A stretch of DNA of 30,848 bases from a virus. The notes under the pieces were generated by a model. It was not told the DNA's origin and made no database searches. It saw only the letters and a list, made by a program, of their open reading frames with translations. Positions 1-19,840 of the stretch are shown in pieces. The position numbers and the translations under genes are program-made. The stretch's first letter is position 1. Every line of letters begins with the position of its first letter. The stretch spans positions 1 through 30,848 of IMG/VR virus record IMGVR_UViG_3300020022_000004; one strand, written 5' to 3'.

Positions 1-18
1 GTCGATAGCGATCGAGCT

Positions 19-66
19 CAAATAAAAACGGCCCGCGAGCCCCCCTTCTTCTGAGCTCGCGGCCGT
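19..66 (-). terminator. Leftward intrinsic terminator upstream of the integrase
   Basis: Arms at 28-40 and 55-66 form a 12-bp GC-rich stem (one bulged base) around a 14-base loop. Read on the minus strand the stem is followed by TTTTTATTT, the classic layout of a rho-independent terminator. It stops transcription arriving from the right. No leftward gene ends next to it: the nearest leftward ORF with any support ends at 3687. It is therefore either the end of a short antisense RNA or the stop for late transcription that has crossed the integrase operon. Confidence 0.8.
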
Positions 67-117
67 CCCTTGTCCGGCTTCCTTACGCGGCGAAAATCCT
101 ATCACATCCTGCCCTGA

Positions 118-146
118 TTGACTCCAAAGACTCCGCATGCTATAAA
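118..146 (+). promoter_or_regulatory. Sigma70-type promoter of the integrase operon
   Basis: TTGACT (118-123) and TATAAA (141-146) are separated by exactly 17 bases, close to the sigma70 consensus. Transcription would start near 153, giving a leader of under 20 bases before the TTG start at 170. Two direct GACTCC copies (120-125 and 129-134) overlap the -35 box and spacer. An inverted copy GGAGTC (158-163) overlaps the ribosome binding site. They could be operator half-sites, which is inference. Confidence 0.7.
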
Positions 147-169
147 GAGCACGTCCTGGAGTCCTGCGC

Positions 170-1210
170 TTGAGCAAGAAACGAAGAGGCGGAGTCTTCG
201 AACGATCCGGCGTCTGGTGGATCGACTATTACGACGCGGCCGGCCTCCGGCATCGCGAGAAGATCGGCCGGCAAGATGAAGCGCGGATCGCATACGCCAG
301 GCGCTTGCAGGAAGTCGCGGACGGAAGATTCGTCTCGCCTCGCAATCGCGTAGCGACTTTCCGTGAGCTCGCGATCGTCGCGCTAGAGCACAAGAAACTC
401 CATCTCGCTCCGCTCTCTTATGAGACGGATGTCCGGCGCCTGGATACCCTTCTCCCGTTGATCGGCTCGATCCCCGTCGAGCAATTATCCGGAGAGAAGA
501 TCGATGAAGTCTTCGCCGGCATGAAGCGCGAAGGCCTTTCCGGATCGACCATAAATCGCTATCGATCGCTTGTCTCCTCCATTTTTTCCTATGCCCTTCG
601 AGTCGGCCGCGTCCGCTCGAATCCCTGCTCCCGAGTGCATCGATACCGCGAGAACGATTCCCGCGTCCGATACCTCCGCGACGAGGAAGAAGAGAAGCTC
701 CGCAAAGAGATCCAGAGGAAATACGCGGATCGCGAGGCGGAGATCGATCTGGCGCTTTATACCGGGATGCGCCGCGGCGAGCAATTCACTCTCAAATGGG
801 AAGATGTCGACCTCGCGGCCGGGATCCTCACGGTCCGCGGCAAGACCGGACGTCGATACATCGTCGTCAATTCCGGCGCTAAGAAGGCGCTCGAGGGACT
901 CCTCGCCGAAGCTACGGCGCGCGGCTCGAAACCGATCTCCTCTGTATACGTTTGTCCGGAGACGAAACGCGACGGTCAACGGGACTGGCGCCGCTGGCTC
1001 GAGACGGCCGCCAAGGCCGCCGGCGTCCGTAATTTTCGCTGGCATGATCTTCGCCACACTTTTGCGTCCCGCCTGGTGATGGCCGGCGTCGATCTCCGGA
1101 GCGTCCAGGAGCTCCTCGGACACAAGTCGATCTTGATGACCATGAAGTACGCGCATCTCTCGCCGGACCATCGAGCGGCCGCGGCCGAGAAGATCGGAGC
1201 GAATAAATGA
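170..1210 (+). CDS. int: Tyrosine recombinase (phage integrase)
   Basis: This 346-residue protein is a site-specific recombinase that would insert and, with a directionality factor, excise the phage genome. Residues 1-60 look like an arm-type DNA-binding region, 62-155 a SAM-like core-binding domain, and 165-335 the catalytic domain. The catalytic set is complete: R201 (TGMRRGE), K225 (GKTGR), H292 and R295 (HDLRH), H318 (LLGH) and nucleophile Y327 (MKYAH). The start is TTG at 170, preceded by GGAG at 158-161, and no ATG gives a better start. The length is usual for the family. Its stop overlaps the next start (ATGA), so it heads an operon. No attachment site could be identified nearby. Confidence 0.95.
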   Translation: MSKKRRGGVFERSGVWWIDYYDAAGLRHREKIGRQDEARIAYARRLQEVADGRFVSPRNRVATFRELAIVALEHKKLHLAPLSYETDVRRLDTLLPLIGSIPVEQLSGEKIDEVFAGMKREGLSGSTINRYRSLVSSIFSYALRVGRVRSNPCSRVHRYRENDSRVRYLRDEEEEKLRKEIQRKYADREAEIDLALYTGMRRGEQFTLKWEDVDLAAGILTVRGKTGRRYIVVNSGAKKALEGLLAEATARGSKPISSVYVCPETKRDGQRDWRRWLETAAKAAGVRNFRWHDLRHTFASRLVMAGVDLRSVQELLGHKSILMTMKYAHLSPDHRAAAAEKIGANK

Positions 1211-1494
1211 TCCTGCCGTCGATGCTTCCCGATGAGCCTCCCGCTGGATGGAAAAAGAGGATGACCTGCCATTTAAATTTTGGCGGAGGAAAATGCGCCG
1301 CGTCGTATGAGGTAAGAAACGGCGCCGACGAGCTGATGCCGATCCGTTGGATATATAACACGCGAGAAGGCATTAGAGGATTCACTCTTCCCGACGTCGA
1401 CGCAGTAATGACCTGGAAGGAGCTCCGCGAGGCCTGGCCGGCATATCTCGAGCGAATGGCCGCGGCTGAGAGCCAGGCCGGAGGGAAACCATGA
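1207..1494 (+). CDS. Small unknown protein behind integrase
   Basis: This 95-residue protein is not recognised. Its ATG overlaps the integrase stop (ATGA), so translation is probably coupled. The N-terminal half contains two cysteines (MTCH, GGKC) inside a likely beta-rich segment, and the C-terminal third (about 65-90) looks helical. There is no signal peptide or membrane segment. It opens a run of small genes joined by 4-base overlaps, which argues for one transcript with the integrase. Accessory roles such as excision control or defence-related functions are possible, but nothing in the sequence selects one. Confidence 0.7.
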   Translation: MILPSMLPDEPPAGWKKRMTCHLNFGGGKCAASYEVRNGADELMPIRWIYNTREGIRGFTLPDVDAVMTWKELREAWPAYLERMAAAESQAGGKP

Positions 1495-1748
1495 TTATCA
1501 ATGGATATCCGGACGAGCTCGACTATGTCAATGCACTGTTGCATGGTCAGGTCCGCGACAAGATCAATAGCTTCCTAGGGACGTTCTGTCTCGCGTGTGT
1601 TCGAGCGGACAGCCAGAACTACGAGCTCCTCCGCCCGCTCCTTCTCATTTTCAGGGAGAAGTACCCCGCGGATCCAAAACGTCTCGCGATGGAGCGGATC
1701 GACTCCGGACGCGAGCGCGCCGGCGATCGAGAAAGAGTCGCGGAATGA
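1491..1748 (+). CDS. Small unknown protein with CxxC pair
   Basis: This 85-residue protein starts with ATG overlapping the previous stop (ATGA). It is mostly helical by composition, with a CLAC pair near residues 33-36 that could bind metal or form a disulphide. The last 20 residues are highly charged (Arg/Glu). No family is recognised. The neighbours on both sides are coupled by overlap, so it belongs to the integrase-linked operon. Confidence 0.65.
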   Translation: MIINGYPDELDYVNALLHGQVRDKINSFLGTFCLACVRADSQNYELLRPLLLIFREKYPADPKRLAMERIDSGRERAGDRERVAE

Positions 1749-1933
1749 TCGACTGGATCCGCCGGCTTTTCCAAATAAAGACGGAGATAGATCCTCCGCC
1801 GGCGGATCCAGACTTCGATTGCATCGAGAACCTGGCGAAACCGTGGATCCATCCGTTTATCGTCCATCGCGAGAGATGCCGGCAATGTCAAGGCCTCGAT
1901 CCTTGTCCGATCGGCCGCGAGCTCCTCAAATGA
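1745..1933 (+). CDS. Small Cys-rich unknown protein
   Basis: This 62-residue protein starts at the ATG overlapping the preceding stop (ATGA at 1745). The frame is open further upstream, but coupling favours this start. Residues 1-10 form an amphipathic helix with two Trp/Phe positions. The C-terminal part has C26, C45, C48 and C54 (RCRQCQG, DPC), a pattern compatible with a small zinc-binding fold. No known family is recognised. Confidence 0.6.
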   Translation: MIDWIRRLFQIKTEIDPPPADPDFDCIENLAKPWIHPFIVHRERCRQCQGLDPCPIGRELLK

Positions 1934-2133
1934 AAAACGCCTGGTTAATCGAATACCAGACTTGCTCGAAGCCTTGCTGGATCGCGACGCGGATCGAAAA
2001 CAATTCTTTCGGCGTAACTTACTCGCCAGGAATGGCGCGCCAATTCGATAACGAGGAAGCCGCGAAGACGGAGATCCATGAGCTCAAGCTCTCCCGCGAA
2101 TGGCAAGCCGTCGAGAGGACGGTGAGCTCTTGA
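1930..2133 (+). CDS. Small unknown phage protein
   Basis: This 67-residue protein starts at the ATG overlapping the previous stop (ATGA at 1930). The layout (a beta-like start with WLIEY, a central WIATR segment, then a helix with EEAAKTEIHEL) resembles short uncharacterised phage proteins in early operons, but that is only a resemblance. Two cysteines (TCSKPC) sit near the N-terminus. Function unknown. Confidence 0.6.
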   Translation: MKNAWLIEYQTCSKPCWIATRIENNSFGVTYSPGMARQFDNEEAAKTEIHELKLSREWQAVERTVSS

Positions 2134-2594
2134 GAGGCCTCCGTACTGGTCGAGCTTGGCGTGCGGAGCTCTGGCTCATCCGCGAGCTTGTCAAGCTAAA
2201 CCGGCCGAAGAGCGTCATCGACGCGGTCCTCGAGACGGCCAAGGCGCGCCGACTCAAAGAACAAACCGCCGGTCTTGGCCCGGAAGGCGAGCGCGAAATG
2301 ATCCAGAAGATCATCGACGCGATAAACGACGAGATCGAAGTTTTCCATCATCCGATGAGGGGAGATCTATTCCGCCGGCAAGTGTACGGCTGGACCGCTG
2401 GAGGCCAGGTCGCGAGAGACGTGCTCCTGGAAAAATGCTCGCAGACTCAGTTATGTCTCGCGAATCCGAAGCGAGCGAAGCTCGCCGGCTGGATCTGTCC
2501 TGTTTGTCACGGAGCCATTTTGACCGGGAAAGAGATCGAGTTTCTCAAACTTCGGCGAGTCGGCCGGCCGCGCGAGCCGGGAGAAGAAGGATGA
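2130..2594 (+). CDS. Unknown protein with C-terminal zinc-ribbon-like motif
   Basis: The best start is TTG at 2130, overlapping the previous stop (TTGA) with GAGAGG about 10 bases upstream, giving 154 residues. An ATG at 2100 would give 164 but lies inside the previous gene. The first 80 residues are helical and charged. The C-terminal part has an EKCSQTQLC segment and, about 25 residues later, CPVCHG, together a plausible four-cysteine zinc site. No family is recognised. Its stop overlaps the next ATG. Confidence 0.65.
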   Translation: MRGLRTGRAWRAELWLIRELVKLNRPKSVIDAVLETAKARRLKEQTAGLGPEGEREMIQKIIDAINDEIEVFHHPMRGDLFRRQVYGWTAGGQVARDVLLEKCSQTQLCLANPKRAKLAGWICPVCHGAILTGKEIEFLKLRRVGRPREPGEEG

Positions 2595-2755
2595 AGCTCC
2601 TCGACTGTCAAGACTGTCGGATGTCATTTCACTGTCATCGCTGTCTTTGCTGCGCTCCGCTCGAGGACGTCCGGAGGCTCGTCCGTCGCGAGCTCGGCCG
2701 CCGGCCGCGGATCGAGAAGGCCAGTCTCCGCCGGCGCCGGCGGGAGGCGAGCTAG
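2591..2755 (+). CDS. Tiny Cys/His-rich protein, likely metal-binding
   Basis: This 54-residue protein starts at ATG 2591, overlapping the preceding stop, with AGAAGAAGG just upstream as ribosome binding site. Residues 6-21 contain six cysteines and two histidines (DCQDC, then HCHRCLCC), a dense pattern expected of a small zinc-binding domain. The C-terminal 25 residues are strongly basic (Arg-rich), which would suit nucleic-acid contact. Family and partner unknown. Confidence 0.6.
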   Translation: MKLLDCQDCRMSFHCHRCLCCAPLEDVRRLVRRELGRRPRIEKASLRRRRREAS

Positions 2756-2935
2756 ATGACGCCTTGGAGGAATGCGCTGGCCGTGCTGATGTTCTCGATC
2801 TTCTCGCTTATCCTCATCCTCGCCGCGGTACGAATGAGCGCCAGGACGAAAGTCAGGATTAGCGTCGCGCTGCTGATCGTCGGGAGTGCGGCGATCGTCG
2901 TCAGTCTGGCGTTTCTCTGGATGGTTAGCCGATGA
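2756..2935 (+). CDS. Small membrane protein, two predicted TM helices
   Basis: Translation from the ATG at 2756, one base after the previous stop, gives 59 residues. Two hydrophobic stretches (about 8-25 and 37-56) are separated by a short basic loop (RMSARTKVR), the pattern of a two-pass inner-membrane hairpin. Size and topology fit a small holin, a pinholin or a superinfection-exclusion protein. The position in the early operon, far from the lysis cassette at the late operon's end, makes exclusion or signalling at least as likely as lysis. Confidence 0.55.
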   Translation: MTPWRNALAVLMFSIFSLILILAAVRMSARTKVRISVALLIVGSAAIVVSLAFLWMVSR

Positions 2936-3036
2936 CCGAGAGCTCGAGGAATACGATCAAGTTTGCCGTCCTGATTCTGGCCGGCGCGCTTTTTGCGCTG
3001 GCCTATGCTGCGAGCCAGAGAGGTTGGGTAGGATGA
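2932..3036 (+). CDS. Very small single-pass membrane peptide
   Basis: An ATG at 2932 overlapping the previous stop (ATGA) opens a 34-codon frame. Residues 9-27 are hydrophobic (VLILAGALFALAYAA) after a short polar start, so it would be a single membrane anchor, or a signal sequence with a possible cleavage after AYA. Its own stop overlaps the next ATG at 3033. The chain of exact overlaps is the main reason to accept it as a gene. Confidence 0.45.
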   Translation: MTESSRNTIKFAVLILAGALFALAYAASQRGWVG

Positions 3037-3464
3037 CTCCCCTCCGACCTGGAGAGCTCTTCCCCGGCGAGGCCTCGGCCGCCTCGCTCGTCAGGGAGCT
3101 CGGCCGAAAGTACGGCTATGGCCGTTTGATCCAGATACTCCGCGAGGCTTGGTCCGAAGAGCTTCAAAACAAATGGCACATGGACACATACGGAGCCGCC
3201 GTCGGCGCCGGCTTTATTTGCGCCTGGTGCCAGATCGATTCCCGGAATGGAAAGCGAGCCGTCCATCCGAATTCGCCGTCTGCGCCGGCCGTGACCCCGC
3301 ACACTTGCGGGACGCGCCTCGCCAGGGAAGATCGGCTCGCCGAGTTTCGCCGGCTCGAGAAGATGGGAGTCGAGATCGAGCGGCTCCCGGAAACAGGTTG
3401 CCGCGCTTGCAAGGAAGAGATCGAGATTCTGCACGCGGAAAGGAAGCCGGAAGGAGACAAATGA
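3033..3464 (+). CDS. Unknown protein with three Cys motifs
   Basis: This 143-residue protein starts at the ATG overlapping the preceding stop. The frame extends upstream, but the coupled start is preferred. The N-terminal 45 residues are helical. Then come CAWC, a lone C in PHTCG, and CRAC near the C-terminus, separated by helical, charged segments. A zinc-binding role is plausible, and no family is recognised. It is the last well-supported gene of the rightward operon. Confidence 0.6.
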   Translation: MTPLRPGELFPGEASAASLVRELGRKYGYGRLIQILREAWSEELQNKWHMDTYGAAVGAGFICAWCQIDSRNGKRAVHPNSPSAPAVTPHTCGTRLAREDRLAEFRRLEKMGVEIERLPETGCRACKEEIEILHAERKPEGDK

Positions 3465-3559
3465 AGCGTGGGGAAGTGCTCATTAGAGCTACTGGCCATC
3501 GCCTCCGGACCGGCTCTGGCGAGCGTTCCAGGGGTTGCTCATCGATCGCGAATCGTTAG
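3461..3559 (+). CDS. Possible 32-residue peptide at operon end
   Basis: An ATG at 3461 follows a good ribosome binding site (GGAAGGAG) and overlaps the preceding stop (ATGA). The product is 32 residues, basic, with no recognised motif. Start context supports translation, while length and composition do not strongly support a functional protein. It may simply be a reinitiation frame. Confidence 0.3.
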   Translation: MKRGEVLIRATGHRLRTGSGERSRGCSSIANR

Positions 3560-3622
3560 CCGGCGATAACCCGATGCCGTGGCTGCCATTGCGCCGCGTC
3601 AAGCGCGAAAATGGGCAGGCCG

Positions 3623-3646
3623 CACAGGACACATAGTCCTGTGTTT
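3623..3646 (+). terminator. Rightward terminator-like hairpin after the integrase operon
   Basis: CACAGGAC (3623-3630) and GTCCTGTG (3636-3643) form a perfect 8-bp stem with a 5-base loop, followed on the plus strand by TTT and a pyrimidine-rich stretch. It lies 63 bases past the last rightward ORF. The T-tract is short, so it would be a modest terminator. From 3560 to 3686 I see nothing else. Confidence 0.45.
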
Positions 3647-3686
3647 CCGTTACCTTCCATGGAGTTGTCGTGTTCTAAAGGACTTA

Positions 3687-3923
3687 TTAGGCCGCTAAAA
3701 GCTCGCCACTATCAAGTGCCCGGACGGTGCCAGCATTTGTCACGGTTTTGTGTGGAGTTTCTGACACAGTTTCCCGGTCCAGATCGTCCAGGATCTCGGC
3801 CAGGTCGCCGGCCGCCAGACGGAGCTCCTCGGTCGCCTGGAACGCCTCCGGCTGCAAGGCGAGCTCCAGCGCCGAGATGCTTACGCGGTCAAGGATAACG
3901 CGGAGGCGGAGCCGTAGATCCAT
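3687..3923 (-). CDS. Possible small acidic unknown protein
   Basis: This is a 78-residue leftward frame. The middle is helical and acidic (EELRLAAGDLAEILDDLDRE), with residue use like the neighbouring late genes. The ATG at 3923 has GGAG only one base upstream, which is too close for a good ribosome binding site. A hairpin lies about a dozen bases before the start. No family is recognised, and it would be the last gene of the leftward strand. Competing plus-strand frames here look worse. Confidence 0.45.
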   Translation of the reverse strand: MDLRLRLRVILDRVSISALELALQPEAFQATEELRLAAGDLAEILDDLDRETVSETPHKTVTNAGTVRALDSGELLAA

Positions 3924-3934: not shown

Positions 3935-3970
3935 AATGCCGGCCTGTCTTTTTTTAGCCGGCATTCTTTT
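3935..3970 (+). terminator. Inverted repeat with rightward T-tract
   Basis: AATGCCGGC (3935-3943) and GCCGGCATT (3957-3965) are perfect 9-base arms around a 13-base T-rich loop. On the plus strand the stem is followed by CTTTT, on the minus strand by no T-run. It therefore reads as a rightward terminator that would keep integrase-operon transcription out of the late genes. It may alternatively shield the start region of the small leftward ORF. Confidence 0.4.
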
Positions 3971-4072
3971 CTCGAGCGCCTCGCGGGACGGCCGTCCGCT
4001 AGGACATCCGCCGGCGAACAGTCAGTAAGATGACGCCGGCGCGTCCTCCGGCCGCCCCGCGAGGCGTTCGAG
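3971..4072. other. 102-base nested inverted-repeat structure
   Basis: 3971-3994 pairs with 4049-4072 over 24 positions. On the plus strand there is one G-U pair (3976/4067) and one mismatch (3988/4055). Inside, 4001-4005 pairs with 4043-4047 and 4010-4016 with 4034-4040, leaving a 17-base terminal loop. It begins 8 bases beyond the stop of the leftward gene at 4080. On the plus strand it is followed by CTACTTTTCACGTTTT, so a rightward terminator is the simplest reading. A structured RNA, a cruciform protein site or an attachment-related site are other possibilities. Confidence 0.6.
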
Positions 4073-4079: not shown

Positions 4080-4598
4080 TCACGTTTTCATAAATTCGTG
4101 AAACAGGCCCGGCATCTTGTCCGGCTGCTCCTCGAAGACGCGATCGCAAAACGCGAGGATCCGCTCGAGGCTCTTCTTCTGGCCGTCCCATTCGCCGGCG
4201 TAGATCGGCCCGGTGCCCTTCGCTGGCGCATGGAAGCTCACTTGCCCGTTGTGCGGGAGATCGACATACAAGACCCAGGAGGCCTCGCCTCCGATGGGGG
4301 TCTTCGGATCCCGTTTCCATCCCCAGACGATCCCGAGCTGCTCGCCGTGGAGCTCCAGGATTGCGCCGAGGTTTTTCATGCTCCAAGACTTCCGCTGATA
4401 GGCCATCGACCTGTAGGATCCGATTCCGCGGATCCCGCCGCGATAGAGCTTCGCTCGAGCCGAGCATTTTTGAGCGCGGAAAAGATTCAGCGCTACCAGG
4501 CCGAGCTCGCCGCGGCGAGAGAGCTCCGCGTAATATCTTTTCGTGACTTCCGCCTCCGATGTTTGGAAGACGCCGGTCGCGCGCATTGGTAAACTCAC
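4080..4598 (-). CDS. Unknown phage protein, 172 residues
   Basis: The start is GTG at 4598, overlapping the previous stop (GTGA). An internal ATG five codons in is an alternative. Residues 75-140 have an organised beta-rich look with several Trp and a conserved-looking TPIGGEASWVLYVDLP segment followed by QVSFHAP. The last 35 residues are helical. I do not recognise a named family. It is the last substantial gene of the late operon, downstream of the lysis-like genes, so a late accessory role is likely. No signal peptide or membrane segment is seen. Confidence 0.75.
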   Translation of the reverse strand: MSLPMRATGVFQTSEAEVTKRYYAELSRRGELGLVALNLFRAQKCSARAKLYRGGIRGIGSYRSMAYQRKSWSMKNLGAILELHGEQLGIVWGWKRDPKTPIGGEASWVLYVDLPHNGQVSFHAPAKGTGPIYAGEWDGQKKSLERILAFCDRVFEEQPDKMPGLFHEFMKT

Positions 4599-4777
4599 GC
4601 CGAGGCCGCTTCGCCGGTTTTGTTGACGCGCTCCCTAACTCGGAATCGAAGTATCCAGTCGGCGCCCTGCCGGAGCGAGGCGTAGGCCTTTCTGACCTCC
4701 GGCATCGCTTCTTCGCGCTCGGACTTTTCGGCCCAGTCCGCGAGCTCCGCCAGGTCTTCATCCGTAAAGATTCTCAT
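4595..4777 (-). CDS. Small charged unknown protein
   Basis: This 60-residue protein has a strong ribosome binding site (GGAGGACC) before its ATG at 4777, so independent translation is well supported. It is helical and rich in Glu/Asp in the first half, basic in the second. Because of the 68-bp duplication upstream, the reading frame of the spanin-like gene now runs into this gene in frame, so a fusion product could also form. Its stop overlaps the next GTG start. Confidence 0.7.
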   Translation of the reverse strand: MRIFTDEDLAELADWAEKSEREEAMPEVRKAYASLRQGADWILRFRVRERVNKTGEAASA

Positions 4778-4790
4778 TCTGGTCCTCCGT

Positions 4791-5491
4791 TCACTTCTTC
4801 GAGAGCCGGCCGCCGGCGACGCCGGCGATGAAGGCGAGTCCCGGCTTGATCCATCCATTCCAGGCCTTCGACCATTTCGTTTGGCCGGCCAGGCTCTCGA
4901 GCCGGCCCGTGGCTTGATCCATCCGTTCCAGGCCTTCGACCATTTCGTTTGGCCGGCCAGGCTCTCGAGCCGGCCCGTCTCTTTTTTGAGGAGCGCGATC
5001 TGCTCGTCCGCGAGCTGGCGATCGTGATCCCGGCCGGCTAGATCCGCTTTGCATCCCGAGAGATTGTTCTCCGCGATCTTACACGCCGCCAGGCGATTGT
5101 CGAGCGCCTCGGCGTCGACCGTGACGAGCGGCGCCGGCGCCGGCGCGTCCGGCTTCGCGTCCGGAGGCCTGGCCGGCGTCGTCACGACGGCCGAGGCGCC
5201 GGGGATCTCCCGGTTGACGTAGTCCGAGACCTGCGCCGGCGTCTTGATCTTCACGACTTCGGCGAGCGTCGATGCGTTGCGATCGGCCGTTTGCCGGTCG
5301 CGATCGGCCTCGGCCGCGGCCTCGATCTTCCTGCCTTCCTGGACTTTGTCATAAGCGGCCTTGGCCGCCTTGATCTCCGCCTCGCCTTTGAGGCGCGCGT
5401 CGTGCTCCGAGAGCCAGGAGGCGAAGCCGACGGATCCGATCGCCAGGACGGCGACGGCGATCGCGACATACATTTTTGCGTGGAAGCTCAT
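4791..5491 (-). pseudogene. Spanin-like coiled-coil membrane protein, frame broken by 68-bp duplication
   Basis: The start is ATG at 5491, overlapping the previous stop. An N-terminal membrane segment (about 7-24) is followed by a long Ala/Glu/Lys coiled coil, a Pro/Ala-rich linker (about 110-130) and a second helical region with paired cysteines. This resembles Rz-type inner-membrane spanins that join inner and outer membranes at lysis, and the position after a holin-like gene fits. Removing one copy of the duplication restores 210 residues ending in a hydrophobic stretch (GLAFIAGVAGGRL) and SKK at 4791. As it stands, the frame shifts in the repeat and continues to 4595 without a stop, losing that tail. 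The family assignment is moderate; the frame break is directly visible. Confidence 0.6.
4843..4978. repeat. 68-bp tandem duplication
   Basis: 4843-4910 and 4911-4978 are adjacent copies differing at one position (A4857 versus G4925, synonymous in the original frame). Because 68 is not a multiple of 3, the duplication shifts the spanin-like frame. Confidence 0.95.
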
Positions 5492-5733
5492 GGCCGGCGC
5501 CATCCGTCGAGAAACTTCTCGGCGAGCCATTTTCTGGTGTTCTCGTCCTTCTCCCTCGCGATCTCCGTCAAAGCGACCGTCAGAGCTCGGAATTCCATCG
5601 CCGTATGATCCTCGCGGACTCGTTTCCCCAGGCCGTTGAGATCTTTCCGCAATGCCCTAACTACGACCAAGAGCCCGCCGGCCAAGAAAGCGAGCTTGAA
5701 GAGCTCGCCTCCGGAGAGAAACTCGGCTAACAC
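5488..5733 (-). CDS. Holin-like small membrane protein
   Basis: This 81-residue protein starts at GTG 5733, just after a GAGGAA that is rather close to the start. A glycine-containing hydrophobic stretch (about 10-26, LFKLAFLAGGLLVVV) is followed by a charged amphipathic helix that fills the rest. The size, single membrane segment and position immediately before the spanin-like gene suggest a lysis role such as a holin or holin regulator. No named holin family can be assigned, so this rests mainly on context. Its stop overlaps the next ATG (ATGA). Confidence 0.55.
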   Translation of the reverse strand: MLAEFLSGGELFKLAFLAGGLLVVVRALRKDLNGLGKRVREDHTAMEFRALTVALTEIAREKDENTRKWLAEKFLDGWRRP

Positions 5734-6017
5734 TTCCTCGCCGATCGTTTGTTCATTTCCATCTCAAGCCTCCATTTTTCTTTGAGGAGTGCATGGCGGG
5801 TGTCCCGGCGCCAAAGGAGATCGCTCCCCGGTAAACCCGTCTTCTCGAGCATCTCGAGCTGCGCGTCGACGATCTGAGCTTCGATGTACGGCCGGACGGA
5901 TTCCCGGAACGACCCATAGTCCGGAAGCTGGAAGCGATGCTCCTCGATGATGCTGTCGACGAGCGTCTTGTAGGCCGCGGACGCTATGCGCTCGACCGGC
6001 TTCCGCTCTTCCGTCAC
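5727..6017 (-). CDS. Small helical unknown protein (paralogue of its upstream neighbour)
   Basis: This 96-residue protein starts at GTG 6017 with GGAGG about 10 bases upstream. It is mostly helical and charged. It shares an ERIA-A opening and a similar order of helices and Arg/Glu positions with the 102-residue product just upstream, so the two look like diverged tandem copies. No family is recognised. The position between tail proteins and lysis genes is uninformative. Confidence 0.65.
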   Translation of the reverse strand: MTEERKPVERIASAAYKTLVDSIIEEHRFQLPDYGSFRESVRPYIEAQIVDAQLEMLEKTGLPGSDLLWRRDTRHALLKEKWRLEMEMNKRSARKC

Positions 6018-6018
6018 G

Positions 6019-6327
6019 TCAAGTAATCCTCCGGTTCTCGATCGCGAGATCGATCTTGACGAATTCGACGATGAGCTGGTGCTCGCGCGTTTTCAGATCG
6101 TCCGGCGTCATTCTCTGCGACCTGCGATTTTCGCCGAGCTTGGCGATGGTGAGCTCGCGCTGGACGTCGAGCTCGAGCGCCGCGCTAAACTCCTCGGCGA
6201 AGTCCGAAGGCAAGAGCCCTTCCGGACGTTTCGGAAAGAAGCGCCGCATGATGAATCGCGAGGCGGCCGCGATGCGCTCCGTTGGCGTTTTTTCTTCTCG
6301 AGCGCGTCCGTCCAATTGGTCCGCCAA
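6019..6327 (-). CDS. Small helical unknown protein
   Basis: This 102-residue protein starts at TTG 6327, preceded by GAGGG at a short spacing; no ATG gives a comparable product. It is helical and charged, with TERIAAA near the start and a DDLKTREHQL segment in the last third. Both are echoed in the 96-residue protein downstream. Function unknown. Confidence 0.6.
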   Translation of the reverse strand: MADQLDGRAREEKTPTERIAAASRFIMRRFFPKRPEGLLPSDFAEEFSAALELDVQRELTIAKLGENRRSQRMTPDDLKTREHQLIVEFVKIDLAIENRRIT

Positions 6328-6334
6328 GCAGCCC

Positions 6335-7021
6335 TCAATTCATAATACACACGACGGCATGAGAGGTGCCGGCTGGAGGAGCAGGAGCTGAGAAAGAAAT
6401 ACCTATGCATCCGTAGGGACGCGACCCCCCAAGGTCGACGCCGACGTTATAAGTCCCAGCGACTGCCTCGTTCCGATACTGCATCGGAAAAGTTGTGCCG
6501 AAACTGGCAGTCGTCGTCGAGCCGGTATGGGAGCCGCTCGGATAGCCCACCGTGTCCAAGCCGAACCCGATCATCAATTCATCCGCTCCATTCGTTACGA
6601 CCGGAGAAATGGCGGCCGTCCCGGTCCCATTTACCGCGTTGACGGTGTCGACGACTTCAGTGCTAGGGTTCGGAGGGGTCCAGGAGCAAAGCTGTGACAT
6701 GTAAAAACTGGTCGGCGAACCTCCGGTATTGTGCATGTTTACGGTGGGTTGCCCGGCCGTCGTCGCGATGGCCCACCATAGACCGAGGTGATACCCATCG
6801 CCGCGGTCGAGTCCGCCAGCGACAACTTCATTCCAGACATTCCCTTGGTCGTCCGTAATGTTAAAACTGAGAACGCCTCCGCTCGATAGCTGGAGTGCGA
6901 GCAGATCGCCTACGGCAAACGTCCCGCTATTGAAAGCCACGCTTCTGGTGGCGCCAGCCGCAATCGTGGCGGCAAAAGTAAAATCATCCCGCTTGGTGTT
7001 CGAGTGGAACGTCCAGGACAT
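6335..7021 (-). CDS. Probable virion surface beta-sandwich protein
   Basis: This 228-residue protein starts at ATG 7021 with AAAGGAAAGAGAGG upstream. Composition is typical of exposed phage beta proteins: rich in Gly, Thr, Ser and Asn, few charges, many alternating hydrophobic positions, and repeated Gly-Asp or Asn-Gly turns. There is no signal peptide. It lies two genes downstream of the tail-tip gene, where fibre-like or decoration proteins are common. No specific family is recognised, so receptor binding is inference from position and composition. Confidence 0.65.
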   Translation of the reverse strand: MSWTFHSNTKRDDFTFAATIAAGATRSVAFNSGTFAVGDLLALQLSSGGVLSFNITDDQGNVWNEVVAGGLDRGDGYHLGLWWAIATTAGQPTVNMHNTGGSPTSFYMSQLCSWTPPNPSTEVVDTVNAVNGTGTAAISPVVTNGADELMIGFGLDTVGYPSGSHTGSTTTASFGTTFPMQYRNEAVAGTYNVGVDLGGSRPYGCIGISFSAPAPPAGTSHAVVCIMN

Positions 7022-7041
7022 TTCGCGCCTCTCTTTCCTTT

Positions 7042-7923
7042 TTAGAAAGTCCCTCGAATGACGAAGCCGAGTCCGGCCGCCGTGGCGTCCGGAGAAGCCG
7101 GAGCGACAATCTTGAAAACCTGGCCGGCCGTCATCGATTGCGCCGCATGGCTGGACGTCTCGACGACTCCCACAGTCGCGCCGGCGCCGGTAAACGTGAT
7201 CGTCCCGATCTGCGTCGAGTTTTTGAAAATAGCGAAGACTGTCGTCGCCGTGGTTGCGGCCAGTAGGACTGCCTGGCTCGCGAGCGTGTTCGTGAAGTCG
7301 GCCGCAAAGGCGACGGCCTCGTCGACCGGGATATACGCCAGGACTTGCGAGGCCGAAAACGTCCCGTTGACGAAGCCGCCGAATTTATACGGCCGAGGGG
7401 TAAAGACGAGCGCCGTCCCGCCGGAATTGACCTCGACGAGATTGCTACTGGCTCCGGAGTACGACCCCGGAACGTCTCCGAGCCCGGTGAATATCGTGGC
7501 TCCGGCGCCTCCCGAAGTGAGCGAGACGACGTTTGTACCATCGCAGAGCGAGACGACGTTTGTACCATCGCAATAGAGAAGCCGATAGTCAGTCGTCGAC
7601 AGCGCGATTCCCGTCCCCGACGGCGTCTTGACCGTGATCGTGTGCCCGCCGCTGGTTTGGTTCGAAACTATGTACAGTTTCTTATTCGTCGGGACGACGA
7701 TGTTTCGGTTGCCGGTGAGCGCGCCGGTAAAGACAAAGACGAGATGCCCGAGAGCTTCGCCGCCCGCTACGGTTGACATTGTGTAAGTGGCGTCCGGCAT
7801 GGCGATCGCGAGATAGTCCGTCAAGCCGATGTCGAGCTTGTCGAAGGCATAATTCGCCGTGACTTCTTTTTGATTCTGCGCCGCGGCAATGTGCGGGATG
7901 AGCAGGTTGGGAGTCGTCGACAT
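7042..7923 (-). CDS. Tail-associated protein with DUF2793-like N-terminus
   Basis: This 293-residue protein starts at ATG 7923 with GAGGACACC upstream. The opening (TPNLLIPHIAAAQNQKEVT) matches the pattern of DUF2793-type phage proteins found next to tail-tip genes, where a short N-terminal motif probably attaches to the tail. The remainder is beta-rich and ends in a Gly-rich domain. Residues in the middle contain an exact nine-residue tandem repeat (CDGTNVVSL twice), caused by a 27-bp in-frame duplication. Likely an exposed tail protein, with a receptor role inferred. Confidence 0.7.
   Translation of the reverse strand: MSTTPNLLIPHIAAAQNQKEVTANYAFDKLDIGLTDYLAIAMPDATYTMSTVAGGEALGHLVFVFTGALTGNRNIVVPTNKKLYIVSNQTSGGHTITVKTPSGTGIALSTTDYRLLYCDGTNVVSLCDGTNVVSLTSGGAGATIFTGLGDVPGSYSGASSNLVEVNSGGTALVFTPRPYKFGGFVNGTFSASQVLAYIPVDEAVAFAADFTNTLASQAVLLAATTATTVFAIFKNSTQIGTITFTGAGATVGVVETSSHAAQSMTAGQVFKIVAPASPDATAAGLGFVIRGTF
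7519..7572. repeat. 27-bp tandem duplication, in frame
   Basis: 7519-7545 and 7546-7572 are identical adjacent copies. Because 27 is a multiple of 3, the coding frame survives and the protein gains a nine-residue repeat. Confidence 0.95.
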
Positions 7924-7937
7924 AGGGGTGTCCTCGC

Positions 7938-10900
7938 TTAAACTCTCGCGCCGGCCGCGAATCCGTTTCCGACTTGCGCGGATACCTGGTAAATGACGAC
8001 GTCGATCTGTGCTTGAGGCGAGCCGAAGTCCGTCGTCTGATCGGCCGCCGTGTAGACCTGTGACGTGGTAGGAATCGAGATAAAGCGCCGGCCGAAGGCG
8101 CCGTATATGTTCCTAACTTCCATCACATAGCTCTCGGCATCTTCGGAGAGCGGGACGGTGCCCGTCCCATCGAGCCAGGCGCCGCCGATCCGCGTCCGGC
8201 GTTCCCAAGTGACGGTCAAATTCCCGGACATATCGCGCGTCCCGGCGATCTCGACGACCGAGTACGGCTTGAGATCGTTTCCCTGCTCTTGGATTAGCGT
8301 CTCGTTGGCATTCGTCACGGCCGAGCCTACGGTGACGGCTTTGAAAAATTGCGGTATCCCGAGATTAGCCGTCGATATGTTGTTCCGGTGGATCCCACCT
8401 CCTCCGAGAGAGATGAACGTCTCGCCGGGGAGATGCGTCCCGACGGCGTACTCCGTTCCGCGGCGTCCGCGAAGAAAGCGCGAGAGCGTGTAAGTATTCG
8501 GCGCTATCAGAGTTGCGTTGACGTACTGCACGACCTCGTCCCCGATCAATGCGGCGTTGGCGCCGTTGAGGACATTGAGATCCGTAGTCGAGGAGAGCGT
8601 CCCTTCCATCAAATACACGGTGATCGAGCTCGTCTCGTCCCAAGTCCAGACGGCGCGAGGCGCCGGGAGCGTCGCGGAGATGGAGCCGATCGCCGGCTGA
8701 TCGTCCGCGAAGCCGACGGGATCCCAATGATCGGCATCGATCGAGCGGTAGAGGACTCCGCCGGTCCATCCGAGGCCCACGGCCGCCATCGCGAAGTAAT
8801 ACCCGATCAAGCCTGGCGCCGGCGCGTCCGTATCCTGGAGGAGCGGAAGATCCAGGACGAAGAGGAGCGTCGGCGGGAGAGGCTCGACGGTCTGCGAAAC
8901 GAAACCGTCGCTCGTCGCGCCGGCGATCGTCGAGTTATAGCTTCGCGCATCCTCGGATACCACCGTGACCTCCATCGTCAGATCGACGCCGGAAGTCGTC
9001 TTCAGGAGGCGCGCTGCATAGCCGTCGCCGTTGTAGGTGAACTGGATGACGTCCGATGGATCCATCGCCAGGTAGACGGCGCGCCAGAGCTTCATCTCAT
9101 AGCCGTCCTTTTCGTCCCAGATAACCTGCAAGGCCTTCGCGGCCAGCTGCGCGGCTTCATCAGCGTGCAAGGTGACGGGAAGCTCGAGCGTCAGTTTTTG
9201 TCTTGTCTTTTTGACGCGGCCGTGTCTTTGCCTCTTCTGTTTTCCGCTCTGGTAATCGAGCGCCGGATCGATGTAGTTGACTTCCAGCGTCTTCGGAAGA
9301 TCCGCCTCTTGAGCTTCGCTTGGTACTAGTTTTGCGTCCTGGCCTAGCATCCCGAGATCCGCTTCCGGAATATTCGTCGAGGCCGAGGCGCCGCGGAGGA
9401 CGGCCTTGATCTTGTTGTCCGTTTCGGGGAGATCGAAGAAGTACGCCTGCATGAGCGGAGCGAGTGCTCCCTTGACGTCGGGATTCCGCGCGACGAGATA
9501 GCCGCGGACGATGATCGAGGACAAGGCGGTTAGATCCATGTCTCCCGGATCCATCCCGCCTCGAGTGAGAATGTCCCCGACTACGGCGTCGAGCGACTGT
9601 CCTGGAACGGCTTGCCGGTCCAGGTAGAGCCGGTAAGTGAACGGATAGCTCGCGTTGAAGATAATAAAAAGGGAATTCGTCTGGACGTCGTAAGATTGGC
9701 CGCGGACGCCGGTCGGAGAGAGTGGAATCCAATTTGACAAGCCGATGACTTGCTCCTGCACCAGAGTCGAAGAAGAAATTACGGCGATCTCATCGACCCC
9801 ATGCTGATTTGTGAATAAGCGGACGAGTCCATCGGCCGGAACCTGGCCGGCCGGATAAAACGTCGAAATGAATTCCTCATAAGAGGCGCCGAGCCCGAAG
9901 ACTTGGCCGGCGCTCGTCGCGAGGATCGCGAACGTCGAGCACGACATCTTGATGATGTATCCGGTATCGGTGAAGAGCAGAAGCGAATCGTCGACCGAGT
10001 CGTACAGGATGGACTTTGGCGTCCCGACCGTCGCGTTGGATAAGAATTCGATGGCGGGAGCTTCTCCCCCGGATGGCATCGAGAAATAGTTTGAGGCAAA
10101 GCCCCGCTGATCGATGATCGCAATCAAATATTTGTAGGAACCGCCGTGCGTGAGAATGTACGCGCGGGAGTTGTTGTCCAAAGCGATTGAGGGATGGTCA
10201 TAGATGGCGCCCAAAGCTACCGGAATGTAGTCCTGGACGCCGATATTCCTCTTATCCGTTTGAAAATGCGCGGTCGCATGCGTGCCGGTCCAAGGCACGG
10301 TAAAAACGACGAGATTTTCTCCGGCGTGCGTCTTCTGAAATTGATACGCCGACGGCGCTTGCGGCATCCAAAACCGCGCGATTTCGTTGAACGTTCGCGG
10401 ATCGAATTTGATCGCGGCATTCGTCAAATAGTCTGGGAACCCGTTGTCCGGAAAAATTCCTGTGATGGTGCGCCAGATGAAGCCCGCCGTATCGACGCCG
10501 CCCGTCAATGGCAGATTTCCTCCTCCTCCGGAATAATGCGAGCCAGCATACGGAGTGAGCACCCCTTGATTCGTTACGGCGATGGCCTCCGGACCTGCGC
10601 CGATGTTGCCCCAAATGACATGATGATCGACAGTTACCGCGTTTAGTCCTATGCCCCAAGTCGGAGCCGATCCTCCGGTCAGAGCGTCGCCGCTGGTCGA
10701 TGTGACGCATTGGACGTTTCCATTCGAATCGAGGATCTGAGTGCCGACTAGCTCCATCGTCGCGGATGACCAGGCCGGCAAAGGCGTCTTATTGTCGGCG
10801 TTTAGATCGATCCTCTCGACGACCATTCCCGGAGTTTCGAGCACATATGCCGCGCGGTTGACGGTGTCGACATAAACCGCCCACGGCGGATACGGACCAG

Positions 10901-11693
10901 GCCCGGTTCCGCCGTAGGGATCCGTGACCGAAGTCGGCGGATAGATGTCATAGAGGTAAGAATTCGTGATGCCGATCGAAACCTCGCCGCGAATGTTCGG
11001 GAGACGGTTTCCGAAATTGGCGAGCGGAAAGTCCGTATAGACACCGTAATGTGTCCCGCGAAACGCCGGCGTCGAATTGATTCCGACGTGCGCCTGGATG
11101 GTGGGATCCGGTAGCTGAGTCGTCGAACCGGGATAGAGGACCGGCGTGACGATCGCGGTGTTATTGCCTATCCCGGTCGCGAACTTGTTCGAAGTTACGG
11201 AGCCCTTCGATGTCGCGTCATAGATGAGCTTCGCGTCTCCCCAGATCCGCGTACAGTGTGCCAGGCTTCCGATGGGAACCTCGCAAAACGCGAACGCGAA
11301 CGACATCGTATAGGAGTAGCTAAGAGTCGTCTGACTCGGCCCGCCCTTGGCCGATTGCGTGGTTTGCGTTTTCGTTTCCTTGAGCGGCGTGGCCCAGATG
11401 ATCTGCGCGCCGACGAGAAAGCCGCCATAACCAAACGGCCGCGGCGAGCCGTTCGCGGAAGTAGAGATCTGTCCGTCCTGGATTCGAGGACCGGAGACGC
11501 TCGAATTTTGCGGAAAGAAAATATTCCCGAGCGCGCGGCCGGCGGAAAGTCCGATCGAGCCGCCGAGGAGAGCGCCTCCGAGGATGGAACCTCCGGCAAA
11601 CGTGCCGGCAAAGATTCCGAAACCGGCCGCGGCGAGGCCTCCGGTAAGAGCGCCGGCGACGCCGATCCCGATCGCGAGCGCGATCTTCGCCAT
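7938..11693 (-). CDS. Large tail-tip/host-specificity protein with inserted beta-propeller-like region
   Basis: This 1251-residue protein starts at ATG 11693. The frame is open further upstream, but that part overlaps the NlpC/P60 gene and reads as non-coding. Residues 1-58 are a Gly/Ala-rich hydrophobic segment typical of this tail-tip family. About 80-240 is the N-terminal structural domain, ending in FGNRLPNIRGEV. Residues 270-693 contain at least six blade-like repeats (for example SIALDNNSRAYIL, SILYDSVDDSLLLF, SYDVQTNSLFII), a probable beta-propeller, with a small extra domain at 314-367. From about 695 (SLDAVVGDILTRGG) the Phage-tail_3-like region resumes, followed by beta-rich domains. 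It would sit at the tail tip and contact the cell surface. The usual gene order (DUF2460, BR0599, NlpC/P60, then this) supports the call. Confidence 0.85.
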   Translation of the reverse strand: MAKIALAIGIGVAGALTGGLAAAGFGIFAGTFAGGSILGGALLGGSIGLSAGRALGNIFFPQNSSVSGPRIQDGQISTSANGSPRPFGYGGFLVGAQIIWATPLKETKTQTTQSAKGGPSQTTLSYSYTMSFAFAFCEVPIGSLAHCTRIWGDAKLIYDATSKGSVTSNKFATGIGNNTAIVTPVLYPGSTTQLPDPTIQAHVGINSTPAFRGTHYGVYTDFPLANFGNRLPNIRGEVSIGITNSYLYDIYPPTSVTDPYGGTGPGPYPPWAVYVDTVNRAAYVLETPGMVVERIDLNADNKTPLPAWSSATMELVGTQILDSNGNVQCVTSTSGDALTGGSAPTWGIGLNAVTVDHHVIWGNIGAGPEAIAVTNQGVLTPYAGSHYSGGGGNLPLTGGVDTAGFIWRTITGIFPDNGFPDYLTNAAIKFDPRTFNEIARFWMPQAPSAYQFQKTHAGENLVVFTVPWTGTHATAHFQTDKRNIGVQDYIPVALGAIYDHPSIALDNNSRAYILTHGGSYKYLIAIIDQRGFASNYFSMPSGGEAPAIEFLSNATVGTPKSILYDSVDDSLLLFTDTGYIIKMSCSTFAILATSAGQVFGLGASYEEFISTFYPAGQVPADGLVRLFTNQHGVDEIAVISSSTLVQEQVIGLSNWIPLSPTGVRGQSYDVQTNSLFIIFNASYPFTYRLYLDRQAVPGQSLDAVVGDILTRGGMDPGDMDLTALSSIIVRGYLVARNPDVKGALAPLMQAYFFDLPETDNKIKAVLRGASASTNIPEADLGMLGQDAKLVPSEAQEADLPKTLEVNYIDPALDYQSGKQKRQRHGRVKKTRQKLTLELPVTLHADEAAQLAAKALQVIWDEKDGYEMKLWRAVYLAMDPSDVIQFTYNGDGYAARLLKTTSGVDLTMEVTVVSEDARSYNSTIAGATSDGFVSQTVEPLPPTLLFVLDLPLLQDTDAPAPGLIGYYFAMAAVGLGWTGGVLYRSIDADHWDPVGFADDQPAIGSISATLPAPRAVWTWDETSSITVYLMEGTLSSTTDLNVLNGANAALIGDEVVQYVNATLIAPNTYTLSRFLRGRRGTEYAVGTHLPGETFISLGGGGIHRNNISTANLGIPQFFKAVTVGSAVTNANETLIQEQGNDLKPYSVVEIAGTRDMSGNLTVTWERRTRIGGAWLDGTGTVPLSEDAESYVMEVRNIYGAFGRRFISIPTTSQVYTAADQTTDFGSPQAQIDVVIYQVSAQVGNGFAAGARV

Positions 11694-11694
11694 G

Positions 11695-12171
11695 CTAGGC
11701 AACCTCTGGGAACGAGAAAGCGCCGACAATTCGCCGGCGCCAAGGCTCGTTAAGAATGTGCTCGACGACGCGCTCCGGCCCGCCGGAATATGCATGCACG
11801 ATGTAGAGACCATCGCCTCGCAAGGTGATAAAGGCGACGTGCGTCGGAAGATGCGGGATCCGCATCGAGACGATGTCTCCCTCCTGGACCGCCGAGAGTA
11901 GCTTCTGGACGAGGCGCCGCTGGCATTCCGCGTGCACAAAAACGTCGATCGGCTGCGAGTTGTACCCCATATAGTCGCCGCGGTGAAACTGGCTCCCGCC
12001 GAGATCCTTAAGTTGCAGATCCTCGGCGACGCATAGGACCAGGCCGACACAGTCGACGCCGACTCCGATCATCCGCGCTTGATGCCGGAATGGCGTTCCT
12101 ACATACTGCCGCGCTCGGTCGCCGATTTGTTTTCGTCGCTCGATGAGAGCGGGACTCGCTCCGGTTTGCAT
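11695..12171 (-). CDS. NlpC/P60-family tail peptidase
   Basis: This 158-residue protein starts at ATG 12171 with AGGAT upstream and overlaps the previous gene by 73 bases. The NlpC/P60 signature is clear: C41 in DCVGL is the likely nucleophile, H111 in THVAF the general base, and H126 in IVHAY the third position. This family cleaves peptidoglycan stem peptides, and in phages of this type it sits at the tail tip and helps penetrate the wall. Gene order between BR0599 and the large tail-tip protein is the standard one. Confidence 0.9.
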   Translation of the reverse strand: MQTGASPALIERRKQIGDRARQYVGTPFRHQARMIGVGVDCVGLVLCVAEDLQLKDLGGSQFHRGDYMGYNSQPIDVFVHAECQRRLVQKLLSAVQEGDIVSMRIPHLPTHVAFITLRGDGLYIVHAYSGGPERVVEHILNEPWRRRIVGAFSFPEVA

Positions 12172-12371
12172 TCGGCTATCCTCAAGACTCGGCCGTCAAG
12201 ATAACTGCACATCCCTACGGCGGGATGATCGTCGCATCCGCTCCGTTTCGCCGTCTGTCTAAATTCGCGCCATTCTCCCGGCGCCGCCGGCGTCTCAACG
12301 CTGTCGAAGACGGAATGCGTCGCGAGAGCTCCGCACGCATCGCAGTATGTATACTCGCCGATCTTCATCAT
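12099..12371 (-). CDS. Small Cys-rich protein of the tail-tip cluster
   Basis: This 90-residue protein starts at ATG 12371, overlapping the BR0599 stop (ATGA). CDACG near the N-terminus and CDDHP and MCSY in the middle give a Cys/His arrangement compatible with a zinc-ribbon-like fold. The C-terminal 24 residues overlap the start of the NlpC/P60 gene in another frame, which is a long overlap, so the C-terminal end is the less certain part. No named family is assigned. Confidence 0.6.
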   Translation of the reverse strand: MMKIGEYTYCDACGALATHSVFDSVETPAAPGEWREFRQTAKRSGCDDHPAVGMCSYLDGRVLRIAECKPERVPLSSSDENKSATERGSM

Positions 12372-13240
12372 CCCGTCGTCGCGTCAGGGTAGAGCATGAT
12401 CGCGTTGATGCCGGGGAGCTGGTTTTCCCCCTGAAAATTAACGATGTTATTAAATTTGCCGAAGCAATCCTGTGGAGTGTGCCGGCATCCAGGCTCGACG
12501 GCGAATGTGTCGCCGGGAGCGATGGCGAAGGCCATGCTCTCGAAGAGTATGAACCTCGTCCCGTCCCATTCCGCGACTTCCATCAGCGCGCCGTTGTTTG
12601 CTCCCGACGTCCAGGTCAGAACGCCGTCGGCGAAGTATCCATCGCCGGCGGGAGACAATCCGCCGGCCGGCGTAAACTCGCGCCGATCGACGACCATTGC
12701 GACAGTGCCATTCTGCGAGAGCGGAGCCAGGTTGACGGTACAGCGCGCGTCCCCCAGATCCGCGCGGCACGAAGGCCCGAAAGTTTCTCCGATGACGATC
12801 CCGAAAGTGTAGGAGAGCCCGCGTATTTCGACGGTAAACATCCCGCCGGCGATCTTGACCTGGCCGAGCGTGCCCTTCCGGAGCTTCATATCTCCCATTG
12901 TCAGATCGGCCCAATTGACGAGCCGGATATCGATCGAGGCAAAGTCGTACTTTCGAGCGCGGAGATCGCCTTCGGTGACGGCGTCGGAATGGAGAAAGGC
13001 CGTAACTTGGAGATTGTCCGTCGAAAGATCCGATCCAGATTCGCGCGCGCTCGGAGTAAAGCCGGTAGAGGCCGAGAAGACGACAACGCCGTCCCCGTCG
13101 CCGTAATTGTAGGAGATGTCCTGGTCGTGCTGAGTAAAGCCGAGGATCGTCCCGTCTTGCCGTTTCACTTTCCAGAGAAGCGCGACCGTCGTGTACTCGC
13201 CGGAAAGATGCGTGCGCAAGGCGGAGGAGATCGTTTTCAT
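12368..13240 (-). CDS. Phage BR0599/DUF2163 family tail assembly protein
   Basis: This 290-residue protein starts at ATG 13240, overlapping the previous stop. The C-terminal signature of the family is present: C252 and C259 in CRHTPQDC, followed by a conserved-looking FNNIVNFQGE stretch. C158 and C167 (SCRADLGDARC) form the second conserved pair. The family occurs in gene transfer agents and siphophages between DUF2460 and NlpC/P60, where it forms part of the distal tail/hub. The order here is identical. No anomalies are seen. Confidence 0.88.
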   Translation of the reverse strand: MKTISSALRTHLSGEYTTVALLWKVKRQDGTILGFTQHDQDISYNYGDGDGVVVFSASTGFTPSARESGSDLSTDNLQVTAFLHSDAVTEGDLRARKYDFASIDIRLVNWADLTMGDMKLRKGTLGQVKIAGGMFTVEIRGLSYTFGIVIGETFGPSCRADLGDARCTVNLAPLSQNGTVAMVVDRREFTPAGGLSPAGDGYFADGVLTWTSGANNGALMEVAEWDGTRFILFESMAFAIAPGDTFAVEPGCRHTPQDCFGKFNNIVNFQGENQLPGINAIMLYPDATTG

Positions 13241-17013: not shown

Positions 17014-17017
17014 TCTT

Positions 17018-17868: not shown

Positions 17869-18011
17869 TGGTGCCTCCTTGAAACGTTTGTTTCAGACCT
17901 GGAAGAACTGCTCCGCCGCGGCCGAGGCCTCGGCGCTCCGAGGTTGCCTCACGATAACCGCATAAAGAGCGGAGATCGTGAGGATCGGACCATTGTGACA
18001 CATCTGTTTCA

Positions 18012-18029
18012 CTTCGCCTCTAGGCGAAG
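18012..18029. other. Short hairpin at the end of the tail tube gene
   Basis: CTTCGCC (18012-18018) and GGCGAAG (18023-18029) form a 7-bp stem with a tetraloop, overlapping the tail tube stop codon at 18022-18020. No T-run follows on the minus strand, so it is more likely an RNA-stability or attenuation element than a full terminator. The 151 bases between the tail tube and chaperone genes otherwise hold only a doubtful 36-codon frame. Confidence 0.4.
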
Positions 18030-18451: not shown

Positions 18452-18516
18452 ACTGTTCCCCCTTCTTCACTCATTCGGCCAGTACAGGCCTTCCGCGAAT
18501 TTCTTCGCGAAACTCT

Positions 18517-19823: not shown

Positions 19824-19840
19824 GCGTTCCCTTCCTCGAC

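What the first reader, a model, noticed from the sequence alone, without database searches (positions are those of the whole stretch)
28..3687. Terminator polarity suggests late transcription runs antisense over the integrase operon
The hairpins in the convergent zone (3623-3646, 3935-3970, 3971-4072) are all followed by T-rich runs only on the plus strand, so they stop rightward but not leftward transcription. The next good leftward terminator is at 19-66, just past the integrase promoter. Late leftward RNA could therefore cover the whole integrase operon and silence it during lytic growth.
Basis: inference. Interest (0 to 1): 0.6.

Follow-up and report, generated by a model that had tools for sequence, protein, structure and literature searches.

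The report
Leftward-only terminator before phage integrase gene
In this phage and two relatives the only textbook-strong transcription stop signal in the sequence sits just upstream of an integrase gene and faces backwards, as if RNA from the phage's lytic genes runs across that gene on the opposite strand before being stopped; whether that RNA silences the gene is untested.

Summary
The polarity observation holds. The hairpins at 3623-4072 have almost no leftward U-tract, and 29-65 is a strong leftward terminator. It is also conserved: under strict criteria the window (31 kb) and relatives G001 (41 kb) and G002 (42 kb) each hold exactly one strong intrinsic terminator on either strand. In all three it is the leftward hairpin just upstream of this integrase (0.1-0.35 expected from shuffles), directly behind a rightward gene. 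That supports leftward RNA crossing the integrase operon (a convergent, excludon-like overlap).

Corrections: this integrase is a paralogue (int1); the attP-linked integrase (int2) of relatives lies beyond the terminator and would be shielded. Hairpin 3623-3643 is mainly the core of a conserved ~130-bp element, found in 22 related records and resembling these phages' attP. Its leftward U-tract is absent here but present in G001, so convergent-zone polarity is not conserved. Hairpins 3935 and 3971 lie inside the leftward gene block. A weak leftward candidate exists at 1780-1800.

Antisense reach and silencing are inference: there are no RNA data, and Rho could end an untranslated antisense RNA early. 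Verdict: partly supported; new example of a known kind.

The parts
1..25 (+). 3' end of an upstream rightward ORF (stop TAA at 23-25), cut by the contig edge
   Evidence: sequence; rightward genes end at the same place in G001, G002 and G003
17..28 (-). U-tract of the leftward terminator (TTTTTATTTGAG on the minus strand)
29..65 (-). strong leftward intrinsic terminator hairpin; sole strict-criteria terminator of the window, conserved in position and polarity in G001 and G002
118..146 (+). int1 promoter: TTGACT, 17 nt, TATAAA with TG extension; same boxes in G001 with 18-nt spacing
170..1210 (+). int1: tyrosine recombinase of the int1 clade, not the attP-adjacent int2
1207..3464 (+). small overlapping genes of unknown function downstream of int1
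   Evidence: gene model; no Pfam match for those tested
1780..1800 (-). weak leftward terminator candidate inside the operon
   Evidence: number about that expected by chance
3610..3735 (-). conserved att-like element: paired TGGCAC boxes at 3716-3732, hairpin core at 3623-3643
3687..3923 (-). 78-aa gene, left-most gene of the leftward block, homologue in G001
3935..3965 (+). hairpin with rightward tail; possible rightward terminator between two leftward genes
3971..4072 (+). long hairpin (about -75 kcal/mol), no leftward tail, weak rightward tail
4080..30750 (-). leftward lytic (structural and packaging) gene block

Best explanation
29-65 is a functional intrinsic terminator for leftward RNA polymerase. 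Transcription of the leftward lytic block (genes from 30750 down to 3687) has no strong intrinsic stop at its own 3' end. It runs on, untranslated, across the small genes and int1 on the opposite strand and is ended at 29-65, about 50 bp beyond the int1 promoter and before the next rightward gene: a convergent, excludon-like 3' overlap. Lytic transcription would thereby dampen the int1 operon by promoter occlusion, collision or RNA pairing, while the accessory genes, attP and int2 that lie to the left in relatives are protected. Shown: the terminator-like structure, its polarity, uniqueness and conservation, and the gene layout. Inferred: that it terminates in vivo, that the RNA exists, reaches that far in quantity, and affects int1.
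For: Strict scan: exactly one strong intrinsic terminator on both strands in window (31 kb), G001 (41 kb) and G002 (42 kb), each time the leftward hairpin 70-130 nt upstream of int1; shuffle means 0.1, 0.35 and 0.1. An A5 run abuts the stem in all three although hairpin sequences differ. G003 has a -29 kcal/mol hairpin there with a weak leftward tail. Nothing leftward ends near it, and no strict leftward terminator lies between it and the lytic block. None of 17 type-2 loci, in which int1 does not face the following genes, has it.
Against: No RNA data. G016, also convergent, lacks a comparable terminator. In G001 the element hairpin carries a leftward U5 and could end leftward RNA before int1. 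Rho represses untranslated antisense RNA in bacteria (PMC5540618) and C-rich windows occur at about 3490-3530 on this RNA. 12 of the 17 type-2 loci have 26 nt or less upstream of int1, so the contrast is weak. The strict thresholds were chosen after seeing the site.
Confidence: 0.5

Rival explanations
1. Safety barrier: most leftward RNA ends earlier (Rho, weak hairpins). The 29-65 terminator only catches residual read-through, protecting the accessory genes, attP, int2 and, in the prophage, host DNA beyond attL. int1 is not regulated by it.
For: In prophage-like G002 and G003 the terminator lies 1-1.2 kb inside the left att site. Weak leftward candidates exist in the operon. Rho commonly removes antisense RNA (PMC5540618).
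Against: A barrier of this strength, the only one in the genome, is costly to explain if little RNA arrives; does not differ in sequence from the favoured reading.
Confidence: 0.3
2. Upstream-gene terminator or 3' stabiliser: the hairpin serves the rightward gene that ends just before it, as a poor-tailed terminator or an RNA 3'-end protector; the A-tract is incidental.
For: It lies 3-10 nt after the stop codon of a rightward ORF in window, G001 and G002, and close behind one in G003.
Against: No rightward U-tract in any of the four (TCCCTTGTCC, TTCCCGTTTC, TTGGTGTGTT, CGGGGGAGCA), whereas an A5 run abutting the stem is kept in three.
Confidence: 0.12
3. Short divergent RNA: a leftward promoter inside the int1 promoter region makes a small RNA that ends at the hairpin.
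For: G002 has a leftward TTTACA-19-TATAGT match with TG extension just right of the hairpin. TGATA(G/C)GAT-like sequences occur on the minus strand in window, G001 and G003.
Against: No leftward promoter passes the scan in window, G001 or G003; the RNA would be under about 100 nt with no conserved sequence.
Confidence: 0.08

Closest known systems
Excludon / convergent 3' overlap (Sesto et al. 2013, reviewed in PMC7154746)
   Same: Convergent transcription units without a strong terminator between them, so one mRNA would double as antisense to the other.
   Different: Here predicted from sequence only; the overlap (about 3.6 kb) would be closed by a dedicated terminator upstream of the antisense target, in a phage lytic block facing a recombinase operon. 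No RNA or effect shown.
Phage prophage antisense RNAs, e.g. STnc6030 of Salmonella phage BTP1 (PMC7067206)
   Same: Long antisense RNA over phage genes.
   Different: STnc6030 is a separate RNA antisense to structural genes and is shown to act in superinfection exclusion; here the antisense would be a read-through tail of the lytic mRNA over int1.
attP core of tyrosine integrases in tRNA anticodon arms (for the hairpin 3623-3643)
   Same: Inverted core repeats around a variable 5-nt spacer, direct-repeat accessory boxes, single copy, near a tyrosine recombinase gene; the left half resembles the tRNA-Leu anticodon-arm core beside int2.
   Different: 0.3-2.7 kb from the gene, orientation varies, stays intact in G002, which has attL/attR-like repeats beside int2; partner site unknown.

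Membership tests
Intrinsic (Rho-independent) terminator, 29-65 leftward | Stable GC-rich hairpin directly followed by a U-rich tract | tested here: met
   dG -23 to -28, TTTTTATTT
Intrinsic (Rho-independent) terminator, 29-65 leftward | More than chance, and conserved in relatives | tested here: met
   One per genome versus 0.1-0.35 in shuffles; same place and polarity in G001 and G002
Intrinsic (Rho-independent) terminator, 29-65 leftward | Stops transcription in vivo or in vitro | not testable with these tools
   needs a reporter or 3'-end mapping
Excludon / convergent 3' overlap | Convergent units with no strong terminator between them for at least one of the two | tested here: met
   Leftward: no strict terminator between 3687 and 65
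Excludon / convergent 3' overlap | Overlapping sense and antisense RNAs detected | not testable with these tools
   no RNA data
Excludon / convergent 3' overlap | Expression of one unit represses the other | not testable with these tools
   needs mutants or reporters
att site of a tyrosine integrase (element 3610-3735) | Inverted core-type repeats with variable spacer | tested here: met
   Core covaries: 5 of 8 pairs with double changes, 93% paired; spacer varies
att site of a tyrosine integrase (element 3610-3735) | Accessory repeats shared with a recognised attP of the same phages | tested here: met
   TGGCAC pairs near the int2-linked att site in G002, G003, G016 and G019, but not in G001, L031 or L041
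att site of a tyrosine integrase (element 3610-3735) | Split into attL and attR in an integrated prophage, with a matching attB | tested here: inconclusive
   No split copy or attB found; the element is intact in G002, which has a 35-bp attL/attR-like repeat beside int2
att site of a tyrosine integrase (element 3610-3735) | Recombination with a partner site | not testable with these tools
   needs a recombination assay

The most novel reading that the evidence does not exclude
These phages keep a second tyrosine recombinase (int1) with its own att-like site and tie it to lytic transcription in cis: the lytic transcript is left unterminated at its end, crosses the int1 operon in antisense, and is stopped by a dedicated backward terminator that spares the true integration module (int2 and attP).
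Probability: 0.25. Interest if true: 0.7.

Novelty: new member of a known kind. Interest (0 to 1): 0.45.

Why it matters
If true, one of these phages' recombinases is wired to lytic transcription in cis, without a repressor, and the position of a single terminator defines which integration genes are exposed. It is also a case where sequence alone predicts antisense RNA: the only strong terminator in three phage sequences faces a direction in which no gene ends nearby. The conserved att-like element next to int1 raises a separate testable question: why these phages carry two integrases.

Tried and rejected
Hairpin 3623-3643 as a simple rightward terminator: rejected because stem and loop are conserved in about 20 phages while the tails vary.

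Element as the main attP: rejected as the site of int2. tRNA-Leu half-sites or a 35-bp attL/attR-like repeat lie next to int2 instead, and the element is intact in G002.

Element as a sigma-54 promoter (TGGCAC boxes): box spacing varies from 10 to 12 nt, so rejected by inspection.

29-65 as a host terminator captured at attL: in relatives int1 lies 1-2.4 kb inside the att site, and the hairpin follows a phage accessory gene.

Rfam: no family above threshold.

Host: no close annotated phage, and 395 genomes of the phylum of G023 gave no close int1; the host remains unknown.

More close relatives by the second operon gene or conserved DNA: only G001 and one known type-2 record.

Full report
WHAT THE WINDOW IS. 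The window is a whole IMG/VR virus record of 30,848 bases. A codon-based gene model gives int 170-1210 and small genes to 3464 on the plus strand. From 3687 to 30750 the genes are on the minus strand: a 78-aa gene 3687-3923, then tail, capsid, portal and terminase genes. The left edge cuts a rightward ORF whose stop codon is at 23-25.

CHECK OF THE OBSERVATION. The three hairpins exist. Leftward U-tract scores are 0.03-0.12 and rightward 1.1-2.7 (3.4 for 3937-3963), so the polarity is as stated, though the rightward tails of hairpins 1 and 3 are weak. The leftward terminator is 29-65 with TTTTTATTT (dG -23, score 4.55). A strict scan (stem-loop 45 nt or less, tail 4.0 or more, dG -18 or below) finds exactly one such terminator in the window on both strands together; dinucleotide shuffles give 0.1. 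I set the strict thresholds after seeing the site. With looser thresholds (tail 3.4, dG -11) window, G001, G002 and G003 give 17 to 36 candidates each, mostly inside genes.

RELATIVES. Searches with int gave 78 loci in viral contigs. Closest is G001 (IMGVR_UViG_3300050821_003273, 41 kb; int 76% and terminase 91% identical). G001, G002, G003 and G016 share the layout of int1 convergent with a lytic block ('type 1'). Most others have int1 in the direction of the following genes ('type 2'), and nearly all of those tested have no recognisable homologue of this terminase.

THE BACKWARD TERMINATOR IS CONSERVED. In G001 the only strict terminator is leftward at 2342-2378 (dG -31.6, TTTTTGGTTT), 130 nt upstream of int1 and 10 nt after the stop of a rightward gene. 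In G002 it is leftward at 964-991 (dG -20.9, TTTTTCTATTG), 70 nt upstream of int1 and 5 nt after the stop of a rightward gene. Shuffles give 0.35 and 0.1 per genome. The hairpin sequences differ, but an A5 run abutting the stem and a poor rightward tail are common to all three. G003 has a -29 kcal/mol hairpin at the same place with a weak leftward tail; G016 has none comparable. Of 17 type-2 loci none has a leftward terminator there, but 12 of them have no more than 26 nt between int1 and the previous gene, so this contrast is weak.

WHAT IT TERMINATES. No leftward gene ends near it, so it would stop RNA that started further right: either RNA from the lytic block that has crossed the int1 operon in antisense, or RNA started inside the operon. 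No leftward promoter passes the scan close to the hairpin in the window, G001 or G003, but one does in G002. The lytic block of G001 (39804 down to 5978) has no strict terminator of its own. I therefore favour read-through of lytic RNA over about 3.6 kb of antisense, stopped at 29-65. Against full coverage: Rho represses untranslated antisense RNA in bacteria (PMC5540618), and C-over-G windows occur at about 3490-3530 on that RNA.

HAIRPIN 3623-3643 IS SOMETHING ELSE. Its sequence, read on the minus strand as CACAGGAC-TATGT-GTCCTGTG, is the core of an element of about 130 bp found in 22 related records, once per genome in the seven complete or near-complete records where it was found. It lies 0.3-2.7 kb downstream of int1 in nearly all (upstream in L021), on either strand. 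Stem pairs covary (5 of 8 with double changes, 93% paired) and the 5-nt spacer varies. G-U pairs are tolerated at one position, which would also fit an RNA or single-stranded DNA hairpin. Some 70-95 nt away lie paired TGGCAC boxes. In nine genomes, noncoding TGGCAC pairs occur almost only in this element and around the att site of a second integrase, int2. In G001, G003, G016, L031 and L041 the int2-type gene is followed by the 5' part of a tRNA-Leu gene ending in the anticodon loop (CAAGACTTAGGA in G001 and G016, CAGGACTTAGGA in L031 and L041); that half-site resembles the element core CAGGACTA. In G002 a 35-bp repeat at 1-35 and 40571-40605 looks like attL and attR. The tree separates int1 (22 of 30 with the element, none with an attP mark) from int2 (7 of 14 with an attP mark, none with the element). 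The window's integrase is int1. I read the element as a second, att-like site for int1, with moderate confidence; what it recombines with, if anything, is unknown.

CONSEQUENCE FOR THE FINDING. In G001 the element hairpin also carries a leftward U5 (TTTTTGGG, score 3.69), so the lack of a leftward stop in the convergent zone is a property of this phage, not of the group. Hairpins 3935 and 3971 lie between two leftward genes, and I saw no counterpart in the corresponding G001 gap. The antisense RNA would cover int1 and its small-gene operon, while int2, attP and accessory genes of relatives lie beyond the terminator and are shielded. 'Silencing the integrase during lytic growth' therefore applies at most to int1.

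COMPARISON. The layout fits the excludon idea for convergent genes lacking a terminator between them (PMC7154746). Phages have reported antisense RNAs, for example the superinfection-exclusion asRNA of BTP1 (PMC7067206). I found no report in the searched library of lytic read-through ended by a backward terminator upstream of an integrase; that search was limited to open-licence papers.

VERDICT. Observation partly confirmed and strengthened by comparison; interpretation partly supported; new example of a known kind. Shown: structures, polarity, conservation, layout. Inferred: termination in vivo, antisense RNA, silencing.

Noticed in passing
window 3610-3735 (-); L010 5860-6084 (-); L018 4654-4882; L025 5530-5763; others: Conserved ~130-bp element (paired TGGCAC boxes plus covarying hairpin CAGGAC-N5-GTCCTG), in 22 related phage records near int1; resembles the att site of the paralogous int2. 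In most type-2 phages it lies 20-30 nt before a start codon.
   Followed up: partly
G001 (L088-L090), G002 (L091-L093), G003 (L094, L095), G016 (L102-L104), G019 (L107, L108): These phages carry two tyrosine integrases of separate clades: int2 beside an att site (tRNA-Leu half or 35-bp repeat) and int1 with the element downstream.
   Followed up: partly
window 4843-4978: 68-bp tandem duplication (99% identical) within the gene at 4595-5503; 68 is not a multiple of three, so it shifts the frame of the C-terminal end relative to the G001 homologue. Real event or assembly error.
   Followed up: no
window 3687-3923 (-); L010 5978-6247 (-): The 78-aa protein and its G001 homologue both end in LLAA, like a tmRNA-type degradation tag; function unknown.
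   Followed up: no
L010 1-98 and 3396-3493: G001 ends share 88 bp, inside int2, and this stretch is identical over 98 bp to int1: recent exchange between the two integrase genes, a circular genome, or an assembly break at the repeat.
   Followed up: partly
window 118-170; L010 2420-2510 and 340-450: Repeated ACTCC/GGAGT motifs overlap the int1 promoter and resemble the GCGGGGAGT repeats beside the G001 att site, suggesting integrase binding at its own promoter.
   Followed up: no
window 3971-4072: Very stable 102-nt inverted repeat (about -75 kcal/mol) between two leftward genes, with no long relative among the fetched loci (only a 23-bp match); purpose unknown.
   Followed up: partly
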